Below, piece by piece: positions 4,703 to 8,980 of a DNA stretch of 64,000 bases (position 1 is its first letter; each line of letters opens with the position of its first letter). The DNA comes from a virus. Made by a program: the position numbers and the translations under genes. The stretch covers positions 62,001 to 126,000 of IMG/VR virus record IMGVR_UViG_3300017917_003893. One strand, given 5' to 3'. The notes under the pieces are model-generated. The model was given only the letters and a program-made list of their open reading frames with translations. It searched no databases and was not told where the DNA came from.

Positions 4703-5092
4703 ATGATAAAGAATTTCAAATTATTTAATGAAGGTAAAAAGGAAAAATTTCCTAATATTCAAAAATTAGACATAGATGGCTTTGTAGTTTATGTTGGAAA
4801 AGATGCTAAGTCAAACGACCATTTAACATTTAATGTTGCTGATAAAGAAGATATTTGGATGCATGTTAAAGGTGTTCCAGGAAGCCATGTTGTTATTCGT
4901 GTTAGAGAAAATTTACCTACAGAAACTGTTATTAAATCTGCTGCTTTATTGGCTAAAAAGAATAGTAAAGCATCTAAGGAAAATAGTGCAACTGTTGTTT
5001 ATTGTCAAAGAAGGTTTGTTAAAAAAGAATCAGGTATGAACGATGGTCAAGTTAAAGTTGATTATACTAATTCTTATCAAATTGTAGTTTAA
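4703..5092 (+). CDS. Stand-alone NFACT-R (DUF814) domain protein, head-targeted candidate
   Basis: Residues about 25-129 match the NFACT-R domain of RqcH/NEMF. The signatures are DIWMHVKGVPGSHVVIR, then a helix of small residues and lysines (SAALLAKKNSKAS), then CQRRFVKKESG. In RqcH this domain contacts RNA in stalled-ribosome quality control. The other NFACT parts are absent, so this is a minimal 129-residue version. The N-terminus MIKNFKLFNEGK fits the shared head-targeting pattern with a possible cleavage after LFNE. Inferred role: delivered with the DNA to act on host ribosomes or RNA. Confidence 0.75.
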   Translation: MIKNFKLFNEGKKEKFPNIQKLDIDGFVVYVGKDAKSNDHLTFNVADKEDIWMHVKGVPGSHVVIRVRENLPTETVIKSAALLAKKNSKASKENSATVVYCQRRFVKKESGMNDGQVKVDYTNSYQIVV

Positions 5093-5126: not shown

Positions 5127-6533
5127 ATGGATAAATTATTAAGATATAATCAAATATTTGAAGCTGGTACTCAATCAGTCTCCGCTTCAAATGACCAAGT
5201 TAGAGTTAAGTTTACTCAAGATTTACATGATATTCTTAAAGTATTAGAAGATGAGAATAGTTATATAGCCTTTGAAATGCTTTGGTTAAATGAACCAAAT
5301 TCTAAATACTATAATGGATTAAAAATAGGTAAGGTTGATGTGTCTAAAACAAAATCCTGCTTAGATGTTACTATAGGTGAGAAGGTTCATCCTATGAAAA
5401 TAGAAAATTTTATTAAATTTTATTTTAAAAATTACTTTCAAGCCTCAGATATATCTGAATTCATTGAACAATATGATATTTTAGCTGGTGGTGGTTCTAT
5501 TGAAGACCACAGAGTTAAGATAACACCTGAGCCTTTTAGTTATAATCCAACTGATGTTAGAAGTACATTTATATCTTTAGTAACTAAAACTTATCCACAT
5601 GGTCATGAAGAAGAAGTTATGCAGTTTATGCCAAAACTTGATAAAGATTCTGTTGGTAATTATTATAAAATAATAGGTGAAAATCCAACAACTATGTTTA
5701 CATCTCACTTAGATACTGCTGATAGAAAACAAGGTATTACTAAACTCTTTAGTATGAAAGATGAAAATGGTGATGAAATAATATACACTGATGGATCTAC
5801 TATATTAGGTGCTGATGATAAATCTGGAGTTGCTGTTATGTTATACATGATGGCTAATAATGTTCCGGGTTTATATTATTTCTTTATGGGTGAAGAAAGA
5901 GGTGGTATTGGTTCTGGTTTATTATCATCAGTTTATGAACAAACACCATATTTGAAGGATATTAAAAGATGTGTTTCTTTTGATAGAAGAGATGTTCGTT
6001 CTGTTATTACATCTCAATTAGGTAGAGTTTGTTGTTCTAATCAATTTGGAACAGCTCTTTGTGAACAATATAATAAACAAGGTCTTAATCTTTCTTTAGA
6101 CCCTACTGGTATTTACACAGATTCTGCTTCATTTTTAGAACAAATACCTGAGTGTACTAATATATCTGTTGGATATTACAATGAACATACAGGTAAAGAA
6201 AAACAAAATATTAGTTATTTAGAAAGATTGGCTAAGGCTAGTGTATTAGTTGATTGGAATTCATTACCTACAGTTAGAAAAATAGGTGTAGATGAAGAGA
6301 TAATTAGAAAGTACAGTAAACTAATAAATGATATAAAAGCTAGTCCTTTTGGTATAGATGTTAAGATTACAGCTGAAGAAGGTGGTGGTACTGTTATTAG
6401 ATGTGATTTAGAAGATGGTCAAATAGATGATACATATGAATCTTTATCAACTTTACAATTCTTGTTAAATAAACATAAAGTAAATCAAACAGTTTACTTT
6501 GACGGAGAATATATAAAAATAGATTTATCGTAA
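5127..6533 (+). CDS. M20/M28/M42-type zinc peptidase, head-targeted candidate
   Basis: Residues 145-380 form a di-zinc aminopeptidase-like domain. Metal-binding candidates are H194/D196 in SHLDTAD, D230 in GADDKSG, E256/E257 in MGEERGGIGSG, D286 in SFDRRD and H354 in NEHTG. The first 135 residues are an extra domain of unknown role, starting with MDKLLRYNQIFEAG, which fits the head-targeting pattern with cleavage after IFE. A shorter paralogue at 22122-23222 lacks that domain. The stop overlaps the start of the next gene (TAATG). Substrate unknown. Confidence 0.8.
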   Translation: MDKLLRYNQIFEAGTQSVSASNDQVRVKFTQDLHDILKVLEDENSYIAFEMLWLNEPNSKYYNGLKIGKVDVSKTKSCLDVTIGEKVHPMKIENFIKFYFKNYFQASDISEFIEQYDILAGGGSIEDHRVKITPEPFSYNPTDVRSTFISLVTKTYPHGHEEEVMQFMPKLDKDSVGNYYKIIGENPTTMFTSHLDTADRKQGITKLFSMKDENGDEIIYTDGSTILGADDKSGVAVMLYMMANNVPGLYYFFMGEERGGIGSGLLSSVYEQTPYLKDIKRCVSFDRRDVRSVITSQLGRVCCSNQFGTALCEQYNKQGLNLSLDPTGIYTDSASFLEQIPECTNISVGYYNEHTGKEKQNISYLERLAKASVLVDWNSLPTVRKIGVDEEIIRKYSKLINDIKASPFGIDVKITAEEGGGTVIRCDLEDGQIDDTYESLSTLQFLLNKHKVNQTVYFDGEYIKIDLS

Positions 6534-6988: not shown

Positions 6989-7023
6989 TTAATTTTTTTC
7001 TAAACTTTTTGCTATTTTAAGAT

Positions 7024-7034
7024 ATTATATATAC
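7024..7034 (+). promoter_or_regulatory. Late-type promoter motif before the tmRNA
   Basis: ATTATATATAC lies 25 bp before the predicted tmRNA 5' end. The tmRNA therefore appears to have a phage promoter of its own. Confidence 0.45.
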
Positions 7035-7058
7035 ATTTGTAGTATAATTAACACACTT

Positions 7059-7438
7059 GGGGATGTTTTAGAATTGATTTGCGGGATGGTGGTGATTATG
7101 CAGGTATCGGCTGGTTAAGTATCCGATTAATAAATTAAGTGACGAATTTGTAAACGGCAACGTTAATGAAGTAGCAAGCAAAGAAGATTTAGTATTTGCT
7201 CTACAAAACAACATGCTCTTGGTAGAAGAGCCAGCAACTGTCTAACAACAGTTACTGTTCAAAAAATTCTCCAACCTGTCTCACACAGGAATAAAAGGGT
7301 GAAATGGTTTTTTGTTACTTATTAGAGTTTTTCAAAAAAAGTAAATATTTCGTAAGTTTAGAAAAAGTTACTATGCCTGTGAATGAATAATTATTAACAA
7401 CCGAAAAAGACACCAGGGGCAGTACCTGGTCATCTCCA
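7059..7438 (+). ncRNA. ssrA: tmRNA with an unusual long tag
   Basis: The 5' end GGGGATG (7059-7065) pairs with CATCTCC (7431-7437) and includes the G3-U70 wobble that specifies alanine charging. CAGGTA near 7100 pairs with TGCCTG near 7374 as helix 2. A tag frame runs from about GTA 7150, through AAC GGC, to TAA 7243, and the stop lies in the loop of an AACTG/CAGTT hairpin, as in tmRNA helix 5. The tag is about 30 residues and ends EEPATV, whereas bacterial tags are usually 8-15 residues ending ALAA or similar. The T arm has stem ACCAGG/CCTGGT with loop GGCAGTA, which lacks the usual TTCRA. CCA is not encoded. The role of tmRNA is to rescue stalled ribosomes by trans-translation. Confidence 0.85.
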
Positions 7439-7443
7439 CAACA

Positions 7444-7468
7444 GTCCACTCTCAGAGTGGACTTTTTT
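7444..7468 (+). terminator. Terminator after the tmRNA
   Basis: GTCCACTC and GAGTGGAC form an 8-bp hairpin with loop TCA, followed by six Ts. It lies 6 bp past the mature tmRNA end. Confidence 0.9.
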
Positions 7469-7504
7469 ATTTTAAACAATTTAAGTTATTATAATATAAT
7501 TATT

Positions 7505-8023
7505 ATGATTAATAAATTTGAAGGTAGATTTCGTTTCCTATCAAACTTTTATCCTTGTAAAATAGAACATAAAGGAATTAAATATCCTTCAGTAGAGCAT
7601 TTTTATGTTGCTATGAAAGTAACTGAGATGCAACTCTTAAATGGTATATACTATACAGCCGCTGACTTTAGAGAACTTATATCAAAAATATCAGAACCAG
7701 GTGATGTTAAAAAAATAGGTCAGCGTGTTAAAGTTAGAAAAGATTGGGATGATAAAAAGTTAGAATTTATGAATTGGTCAGTTAGAGAAAAATTTAAAGA
7801 TGAGACTCTTGCTGAAATGTTATTATCAACAGGTGATGAAGAGATAGTAGAAGGTAACTGGTGGCATGATAGATTTTGGGGAGTTTGTATCTGTCCAAAG
7901 TGTTCAAGTTCTGGTGATAATCACTTAGGAAAGATATTAATGTCAATTAGAGATGAAATAAAATTATCAAATCAAAAACCTTCAATAGAAGATTTTATAA
8001 AAGAAAAAAATAAATTAAAATAA
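7505..8023 (+). CDS. NADAR (YbiA-like) family N-glycosidase
   Basis: The 172-residue protein has NADAR family landmarks: FLSNFYPC at residues 11-18, EHFYVAMK with E31-H32, and NWWHDRFWGVC followed by GDNHLGKILM near the C-terminus. NADAR enzymes cleave N-glycosidic bonds; E. coli YbiA acts on riboflavin intermediates, and other members remove ADP-ribose from guanine in DNA or RNA. An upstream in-frame ATG at 7457 lies inside the tmRNA terminator, so the ATG at 7505 is preferred. It abuts the DNA methyltransferase gene. Counter-defence against ADP-ribosylating toxins is a reasonable inference but unproven. Confidence 0.82.
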   Translation: MINKFEGRFRFLSNFYPCKIEHKGIKYPSVEHFYVAMKVTEMQLLNGIYYTAADFRELISKISEPGDVKKIGQRVKVRKDWDDKKLEFMNWSVREKFKDETLAEMLLSTGDEEIVEGNWWHDRFWGVCICPKCSSSGDNHLGKILMSIRDEIKLSNQKPSIEDFIKEKNKLK

Positions 8024-8980
8024 ATGAGTGTAATTTCGTATTTCGGTGGTAAATCATCAAATGTATTCATTGAGTTTATTAACTCAAAGATACCAAAAGA
8101 TGGTTCTATTAAAACATACTTGGAGCCTTTTTCTGGCTCAATGGGAACGTATATGGACGACCCAAAATTAAAATTTGATGTAGTTGTCTACAATGATAAA
8201 AATCGCCACCAGGTGAACTTATATAAGTGTTGTTCAGAACCAGAAACTTTTGTACAATATTTACAAAACCTTAAAAACACTTTGCTACATACAACTGAAA
8301 CTGATCCTTTGAAAAAGTGGGATTTTTATAAAGGTATTTACAAAGAATACATCAAGAATGATTTCCTAGATGATATGAACTTTGAAATTGGTGATTATGA
8401 AAAAGCGGCTATTTATGCTTTCCTAATCACATCTGCTCATAATTCAGTTTATCCTCGTGGTGCTGGTTTCAATGGTTATAAAAAAGATAAAGATAGACTT
8501 AAATTAGAAGTTCTTATTGATAAATTAAAAAAGAATAAGTATACTGAAAAGTTGAAATCTATTACTGATTTTTATAATATTGATTTTGAAGAGCTTATTA
8601 CTAAATATGATTCTGAAGATACCTACTTGTATTTAGATCCTCCTTATGCTCGTTTTGATGAAGCTAAAGGTGAAGATGATGCTAAAAGATTATTTTGGTA
8701 TGGTGCTGATGCTGAAGGTGTTTTTGGTCCAGCTTCTCATAGAAGACTTTTAGAATTGATTAAGAAATCTAAATCTCGTTGGTCTTTATCATACTACTAT
8801 TTTCCTCTATTAGAGGAATTGTTACCAAGAGACCAATATATCTGGACTGAAAAAGAAGTATTCAGAAGTTCGGCTCAAGGTGGTAATAACCATGAGGGCA
8901 AAGGTGAACAAGCTAAAGGTGTTGAGTTGTTAATTTTAAATTATGACCCAATTACGGGTAAAAAAATAAATTTTGAATAA
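8024..8980 (+). CDS. DNA adenine N6-methyltransferase (Dam/D12 class)
   Basis: FGGK (residues 7-10) and EPFSGS (34-39) form the AdoMet-binding part, and DPPY (205-208) is the catalytic motif of D12-class adenine methyltransferases. The 318-residue length suits the family. No partner restriction enzyme is adjacent, so it is probably an orphan that protects phage DNA. The gene begins 1 bp after the NADAR stop. Target site cannot be read from the sequence. Confidence 0.88.
   Translation: MSVISYFGGKSSNVFIEFINSKIPKDGSIKTYLEPFSGSMGTYMDDPKLKFDVVVYNDKNRHQVNLYKCCSEPETFVQYLQNLKNTLLHTTETDPLKKWDFYKGIYKEYIKNDFLDDMNFEIGDYEKAAIYAFLITSAHNSVYPRGAGFNGYKKDKDRLKLEVLIDKLKKNKYTEKLKSITDFYNIDFEELITKYDSEDTYLYLDPPYARFDEAKGEDDAKRLFWYGADAEGVFGPASHRRLLELIKKSKSRWSLSYYYFPLLEELLPRDQYIWTEKEVFRSSAQGGNNHEGKGEQAKGVELLILNYDPITGKKINFE

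What the first reader, a model, noticed from the sequence alone, without database searches (positions are those of the whole stretch)
7059..7438. tmRNA with a ~30-residue tag and an atypical T loop
The acceptor stem (with G3-U70), helix 2 and the stop-codon hairpin are sound, so it looks functional. The tag frame from about 7150 passes the usual end (FAL) and continues through QNNMLLVEEPATV to the stop at 7243. Host tags end in ALAA-like degrons read by ClpXP. Ending in EEPATV, this tag may fail to trigger proteolysis, so rescued proteins could be kept or sent elsewhere.
Basis: partly seen in the sequence, partly recalled or inferred. Interest (0 to 1): 0.75.

Follow-up and report, generated by a model that had tools for sequence, protein, structure and literature searches.

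The report
Giant-phage tmRNA with a long tag
A giant bacteria-infecting virus carries its own ribosome-rescue RNA, which standard gene finders miss because its tRNA-like elbow is altered and its protein tag is three times longer than usual; relatives show that it is a real, conserved gene, but nothing shows that its tag prevents protein breakdown.

Summary
Window 7059-7438 is a one-piece tmRNA that ARAGORN and Rfam both miss. Homologues lie in 114 of 143 related phage loci, beside the gp23-like capsid gene. They also lie in the 634- and 642-kb genomes LR745206 and LR756502, whose lengths match the largest published Mahaphages (predicted Bacteroidetes hosts). Acceptor, T stem and helix 2 show many compensatory changes, and G3-U70 is present in 65 of 65.

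The resume codon is GGC at 7156. The tag is GNVNEVASKEDLVFALQNNMLLVEEPATV (29 aa), with the stop at 7243 in a hairpin loop. All 65 family tags have 27, 29 or 30 residues and end in Ala or Val. Sampled Bacteroidota tmRNAs mostly carry 9-residue -ALAA/-AMAA tags.

The odd T loop (GGCAGUA on a 6-bp stem, with D-loop A18-G19) arose once from the canonical form. It matches the elbow in Rfam consensuses of two-piece alphaproteobacterial and mitochondrial tmRNA, so it has a precedent.

Complete relatives encode SmpB, two or three ClpP and a ClpC-like ATPase, and have no Rfam-detectable tmRNA. The best reading is a phage-owned trans-translation module whose tag is probably still a degron. The claim that the tag escapes proteolysis is not supported. 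This is a new variant of a known kind.

The parts
7032..7039 (+). TACATTTG, Bacteroidetes-type -7 promoter box (TAnnTTTG), with a TTTTTG run about 20 nt upstream (about 7007-7011)
   Evidence: TAnnTTTG lies within 40 nt upstream of the tmRNA in 40 of 65 family members against a mean of 2.4 (maximum 7) in shuffles; the -7/-33 consensus itself is from my own knowledge
7059..7441 (+). one-piece tmRNA (ssrA) gene, mature part 7059-7438, encoded 3' CAA 7439-7441
   Evidence: alignments A1 and A4, nhmmer, RNAalifold
7059..7065 (+). acceptor stem 5' strand GGGGATG with the alanine identity pair G3-U70; pairs with 7431-7437 CATCTCC
   Evidence: G3-U70 in 65/65; positions 5 and 6 vary as AT/GC/GT/CG and TA/AT/CG
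7066..7078 (+). D-loop region TTTTAGAATTGAT with A18-G19 (7070-7071) instead of G18-G19
   Evidence: A18 in all 47 members whose long T loop carries G55; 22 Bacteroidota tmRNA loci fetched as controls, 20 of them printed by ARAGORN and 19 showing the D loop in full, all with GG
7078..7105 (+). helix 2 5' strand, pairing with 7375-7408
   Evidence: most pairs have both-side changes
7106..7127 (+). ATCGG...CCGAT hairpin upstream of the tag (first pseudoknot position)
   Evidence: inner three pairs invariant, outer two compensatory; the loop pairing of the pseudoknot was not tested
7156..7245 (+). tag reading frame GNVNEVASKEDLVFALQNNMLLVEEPATV* (29 aa), resume codon GGC 7156-7158, stop TAA 7243-7245
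   Evidence: frame kept in 65 relatives; lengths 27/29/30; same resume codon as ARAGORN assigns in L141-143, L127, L131
7172..7203 (+). hairpin inside the tag frame (TAGCAAGCAAA...TTTGCTCTA)
   Evidence: compensatory CG/AU/GC changes at A4 columns 137-139 / 154-156
7215..7231 (+). second possible hairpin inside the tag frame, GCTCTTggtagAAGAGC
   Evidence: single-sequence fold of the window and terminator scan; not in the family consensus
7236..7253 (+). stop-codon hairpin (helix 5 position), TAA in the loop
   Evidence: sequence and single-sequence folds
7412..7430 (+). T arm: 6-bp stem ACCAGG/CCTGGT and 7-nt loop GGCAGTA (7418-7424)
   Evidence: stem pairs 50-53 compensatory; sixth pair GC 43, AT 2 among 9-nt loops; C56 in 45/45 and loop position 7 T in 45/45
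7443..7473 (+). intrinsic terminator directly behind the tmRNA
   Evidence: 9-bp stem then T run; 3 terminator-like sites in the region against 0.2 in shuffles

Best explanation
This is the tmRNA of a Mahaphage-like giant phage whose host is probably a Bacteroidota bacterium. It is transcribed from its own promoter and terminated just behind its 3' end. Its 3' end is matured like the phage's own tRNAs, which also end in xCAA, so CCA is presumably added by an enzyme. It is charged with alanine through G3-U70, bound by the phage's own SmpB (or the host's), and enters ribosomes stalled on broken mRNA. Translation resumes at GGC 7156 and adds a 29-residue tag. The tag probably still marks the rescued fragment for Clp-type proteolysis, by the host's ClpXP or by the phage's own ClpC-like/ClpP pair. 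The altered elbow (A18-G19 in the D loop facing G55-C56 in a 6-bp/7-nt T arm) is a compensated alternative to G18-U55/G19-C56, not decay. Shown by sequence: the gene, the frame, covariation, family-wide conservation, co-encoded SmpB, ClpP and ClpC-like in complete relatives. Inferred: charging, SmpB partnership, rescue activity, fate of tagged proteins.
For: Homologues in 114 of 143 related loci. G3-U70 in 65/65; compensatory changes in the acceptor, T stem and helix 2. Tag frame kept in 65 members, lengths 27/29/30, last residue always A or V. Canonical relatives (L127, L131, L141-144, L146) have TTCGA T loops, several read by ARAGORN as tmRNA with the same tag family. SmpB at E 7e-53 and 8e-50 in the 634- and 642-kb genomes and in all three contigs of 385 kb or more. 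No Rfam tmRNA over cut-off in either complete genome. ClpP in both complete genomes and in four of six large contigs. ClpC-like ATPase in six of eight records, with a UVR motif in LR745206 and a VGF motif visible in the sequence. TAnnTTTG promoter box in 40 of 65 against 2.4 by chance. Phage tRNAs share the xCAA end.
Against: No expression, charging or tagging data. The window's own 143-kb fragment contains no SmpB or ClpP, so the partner genes are inferred from relatives. Amino-acid constraint on the tag measured by pN/pS is weak (0.63 in frame against 0.70 and 0.76 in the other frames), partly because a hairpin overlaps the frame. Phage ClpP could serve another purpose. SmpB, ClpP and tmRNA genes are not clustered.
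Confidence: 0.82

Rival explanations
1. The tmRNA rescues ribosomes but the tag is a non-degradation or re-routing tag, so rescued fragments are kept or sent elsewhere.
For: The tag ends in PATV, not ALAA. It carries 18-20 extra residues. The 17-residue front part is more conserved than the tail, as expected if it binds something.
Against: All 65 tails end in A or V, and several are degron-like (-LAVA, -VALA, -LVVA). -ASV is degraded, slowly and only by ClpXP, in Salmonella (PMC11003136). The phages encode ClpP and a ClpC-like ATPase.
Confidence: 0.12
2. A decoy: a tRNA-like domain that titrates SmpB or blocks host trans-translation, as proposed for the short phage DS6A tmRNA.
For: A precedent exists (PMC4131195 and PMC11915505). 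The elbow is altered.
Against: The tag frame, the position of the stop in its hairpin and helix 2 are all conserved, which a decoy would not need. The complete relatives encode their own SmpB.
Confidence: 0.04
3. A decaying or chance tmRNA-like sequence.
For: ARAGORN and Rfam miss it; the T loop is non-canonical.
Against: 38 of 51 consensus pairs show compensatory changes, with 114 homologous loci. The alternative loop is fixed: C56 and loop position 7 T in 45/45.
Confidence: 0.01
4. The elbow was acquired by recombination with an alphaproteobacterial tmRNA instead of evolving in place.
For: The RF01849 consensus has the same T loop GGCgGUA and D-loop uAGGAUCGAC.
Against: Relatives with intermediate forms exist (T18-G19 with ATCGTAC, AGCGATA or TTCGTTA loops). 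The long T arm maps to a single branch of the capsid tree. Alphaproteobacterial genes are permuted, with a 5-bp T stem.
Confidence: 0.08

Closest known systems
Standard one-piece bacterial tmRNA (Rfam RF00023), here the Bacteroidota forms
   Same: 7-bp acceptor with G3-U70 and G7-C66, conserved GAC before the T stem, helix 2, resume codon GGC after a TAA-rich stretch, stop in a hairpin, size about 380 nt
   Different: Host T loop TTCRA on a 5-bp stem, D-loop GG, usual tag 9 aa ending -ALAA/-AMAA, 100-155 bits to RF00023. Phage T loop GGCAGUA on a 6-bp stem, D-loop AG, tag 27-30 aa, below every cut-off
Two-piece alphaproteobacterial tmRNA (RF01849) and mitochondrial tmRNA (RF02544)
   Same: Rfam consensus T loop GGCgGUA / gGCaGUa with D-loop uAGGAUCGAC / UAGAAUUGAC, the same A18-G19 / G55-C56 combination. 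The GG replacement in Reclinomonas and the G in Caulobacter were noted in 2005 (PMC1168896)
   Different: Those genes are permuted and the mitochondrial RNA has no tag. The phage RNA is one-piece, has a 6-bp T stem and a long tag
Phage-encoded tmRNAs (Bacillus phage G, mycobacteriophages; huge phages found by ARAGORN)
   Same: tmRNA carried by a phage; huge phages with tmRNA and SmpB were reported in 2020 (PMC7162821)
   Different: The 2025 tmRNA database (97,179 sequences) has only 79 from phages (PMC11915505). ARAGORN, one of that study's search tools and the one used for huge phages, misses most of this family
Long mycoplasma-type tmRNA tags (from my own knowledge, not tested)
   Same: tag of comparable length
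   Different: different sequence and, in mycoplasmas, Lon-directed

Membership tests
tmRNA (one-piece) | 7-bp acceptor with G1-C, G2-C and G3-U pairs | tested here: met
   65 of 65 distinct genes; these pairs are essentially invariant in tmRNA (PMC1168896)
tmRNA (one-piece) | tRNA-like T arm with TTCRA loop and D-loop GG | tested here: not met
   GGCAGTA and AG in the window; met in the basal relatives L127, L131, L141, L142, L144 and L146. The same exception is the rule in alphaproteobacterial tmRNA, so this lowers 'standard tmRNA', not 'tmRNA'
tmRNA (one-piece) | helix 2 joining the tRNA-like domain to the rest | tested here: met
   columns 23-55 / 366-399, many compensatory pairs
tmRNA (one-piece) | internal tag frame with resume codon and stop | tested here: met
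   frame in 65 relatives, 27/29/30 aa
tmRNA (one-piece) | pseudoknots 1-4 | tested here: inconclusive
   the first hairpin is conserved; pseudoknot pairings were not modelled
tmRNA (one-piece) | score above the Rfam RF00023 cut-off or an ARAGORN call | tested here: not met
   ARAGORN of 153 sequences scanned
SmpB partnership | smpB gene in the same genome | tested here: met
   in LR745206, LR756502 and five of 20 long contigs; not in the 143-kb window record, a fragment
tmRNA function | alanylation, ribosome rescue, tagging | not testable with these tools
   needs bench work
Two-piece (alphaproteobacterial) tmRNA | permuted gene order | tested here: not met
   acceptor 5' strand at 7059 precedes the tag and the 3' strand at 7431
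Clp degron tag | C-terminal small or hydrophobic residues read by ClpX | tested here: inconclusive
   always A or V at the end, -2 variable; recognition not testable here

The most novel reading that the evidence does not exclude
A private, insulated trans-translation pathway: the altered elbow and the phage SmpB form a pair separate from the host's, and the long tag directs rescued fragments to the phage's own ClpC-like/ClpP protease (or spares them) while the host pathway is ignored.
Probability: 0.2. Interest if true: 0.8.

Novelty: new variant of a known kind. Interest (0 to 1): 0.55.

Why it matters
It reveals a large family of giant-phage tmRNAs that the standard finders miss, so phage translation-quality-control genes are under-counted. 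It gives a natural case in which the D-loop/T-loop contact of a tRNA-like domain switches from G18-U55 to A18-G55, apparently a second time after the alphaproteobacterial and mitochondrial lineage, with intermediates still alive. It also makes a clear question testable: what does a 27-30-residue ssrA tag do when the virus carries SmpB, ClpP and a ClpC-like unfoldase of its own?

Tried and rejected
An exact 31-base pattern found nothing in viral contigs. The basal (L142) form had no blastn match in the phage collection. Stop-loss at tag codon 10 (host TAA to phage GAA) was considered as the origin of the long tag, but the stop still sits in the hairpin expected for it, so insertion of coding hairpins ahead of that hairpin fits better. 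A group I intron remnant in the T loop was rejected: the two T-stem strands are only 7 bases apart. A phylogeny-aware test of A18/G55 coupling found only 2-3 independent pairs, nearly all in agreement but too few for significance. The pN/pS test of the tag was weak. The key mitochondrial tmRNA paper (PMC3849159) is not held. SmpB neighbours in bacteria were too many and too mixed to name a host.

Full report
What is there. The window is bases 62001-126000 of a 143,336-base virus record. At 7059-7438 it holds a one-piece tmRNA that neither ARAGORN nor Rfam reports. Rfam's only lead at a loose threshold is 27.5 bits to mitochondrial tmRNA over the T arm. blastn finds the same element in two uncultured phage genomes, LR745206 (634,780 bp, 82.6%) and LR756502 (642,428 bp, 73.5%). 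Their lengths match two of the four largest curated genomes of Al-Shayeb et al. 2020, which belong to the Mahaphage clade and whose predicted hosts are Bacteroidetes (PMC7162821); the accession number itself is not printed in that paper's main text. The window's capsid gene is gp23-like and 75-76% identical to theirs.

Family. Scans with the capsid protein and the neighbouring 468-aa protein brought in 140 viral contig stretches. A DNA profile finds the tmRNA in 114 of 143 loci, nearly always a few kilobases from the capsid gene; most loci without it are short contigs. The 65 distinct full-length genes give strong comparative evidence. G3-U70 is present in 65/65. Acceptor pairs 5 and 6 and T-stem pairs 50-53 take several Watson-Crick types, and the sixth T pair is GC or AT. 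RNAalifold on 49 of them predicts 51 pairs, 38 with both-side changes.

Tag. ARAGORN can read a few basal relatives and, in five of them, places the resume codon at the position aligned to GGC 7156. All relatives keep the frame. Tag lengths are 27 (18), 29 (41) and 30 (6), and the last residue is Ala (33) or Val (32, window and L001 included). A conserved hairpin lies inside the frame (7172-7203), so part of the amino-acid change there, for example Lys9/Phe14 against Arg9/Ala14, follows RNA pairing. This explains why in-frame pN/pS is only mildly reduced. The stop remains in its hairpin loop. Bacteroidota tmRNAs fetched as a control mostly carry 9-aa tags such as GENNYALAA or GNTQYAMAA, apart from a few apparent ARAGORN miscalls. 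The most frequent length in the 2025 tmRNA database is 10 (PMC11915505).

Elbow. Basal members have D-loop GG and T loop TTCGA. A capsid tree places a single change to the longer loop (6-bp stem plus 7-nt loop) on a fully supported branch above 50 of 61 rows. A18 occurs with G55 in 47 of 47; this corrects one machine miscall for L031, whose loop is ACGCAATAT. G18 occurs with U55 in 10 of 10, including nested reversions in L048 and L024/L026. U18 is mixed (six with U55, two with G55). G19 is present throughout, and C56 in every 9-nt loop (45/45). Independent pairs are too few for a significant test. The same A18-G19 with G55-C56 is the consensus of alphaproteobacterial tmRNA (RF01849: T loop GGCgGUA, D-loop uAGGAUCGAC) and is seen in the mitochondrial consensus (RF02544). 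A 2005 comparative-modelling study noted the GG in Reclinomonas and the G in Caulobacter (PMC1168896). The T loop is therefore a known alternative that reappears here, in a one-piece tmRNA with a longer T stem. The phage's own tRNAs keep TTCRA-type loops, a few with ATCGTTA.

Transcription and maturation. A TAnnTTTG box stands about 20 bases upstream, and 40 of 65 relatives have one against 2.4 expected. A strong terminator follows directly. CCA is mostly not encoded (ACAA 41, ACTA 13, ACCA 7). The phage's tRNAs in LR745206 and LR756502 mostly end the same way, so the tmRNA is probably matured by the same route.

Partners. SmpB is strong in both complete genomes and in all three contigs of 385 kb or more, with the conserved GKK..DKR tail region. 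Neither complete genome has another tmRNA that Rfam detects. LR745206 has two ClpP genes (Bacteroidetes-type model best; Ser, His and Asp in place by inspection) and LR756502 has three PF00574 matches. A 709-719-aa ClpC-like ATPase occurs in both and in four of six other large contigs; a UVR motif was found in the LR745206 protein, and a VGF motif typical of ClpP-binding loops is visible by inspection. Three genes upstream of the window's tmRNA is a 129-aa NFACT-R domain protein, a domain known from the ribosome-quality-control factor RqcH.

Interpretation. The most likely role is phage-owned trans-translation during infection. I rate degradation of tagged products as more likely than protection: the tails always end in A or V, some are close to known degrons, and even -ASV is a slow ClpXP degron in Salmonella (PMC11003136). 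Charging, SmpB binding, tagging and the fate of tagged proteins are inferred, not shown.

Noticed in passing
window 4703-5092 (+): A 129-aa protein with a stand-alone NFACT-R domain (E 9e-17), the RNA-binding domain of the ribosome-quality-control factor RqcH, three genes upstream of the tmRNA. Homologues stand at the same place in L001 (5689-6078) and, with an N-terminal extension, in L002 (5335-6024). It may be a second ribosome-rescue factor.
   Followed up: partly
LR745206 and LR756502 tRNA arrays (L005-L007, L009, L011, L012): Nearly all phage tRNA genes encode xCAA instead of CCA at the 3' end, like the tmRNA. A few have ATCGTTA-type T loops also seen in intermediate tmRNAs.
   Followed up: partly
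L154, L156, L158 (LR745206); L153, L155, L157, L159 (LR756502): Giant phages carrying two to three ClpP genes and a ClpC-like ATPase that seems to lack most of the N-domain.
   Followed up: partly
window 5127-6533 (+): 468-aa protein without a Pfam match, conserved between the capsid gene and the tmRNA; motifs HLDTADR, GADDKSG and EERGG suggest an M20-type peptidase.
   Followed up: no
window 7457-8023 (+): NADAR-domain (ADP-ribose-related) protein directly downstream of the tmRNA, followed by a D12-class adenine methyltransferase (8024-8980).
   Followed up: no
L048, L024, L026: Nested reversion to D-loop GG together with U55 inside the A18/G55 clade while the long T arm is kept: a natural double-mutant test of the 18-55 contact.
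   Followed up: partly
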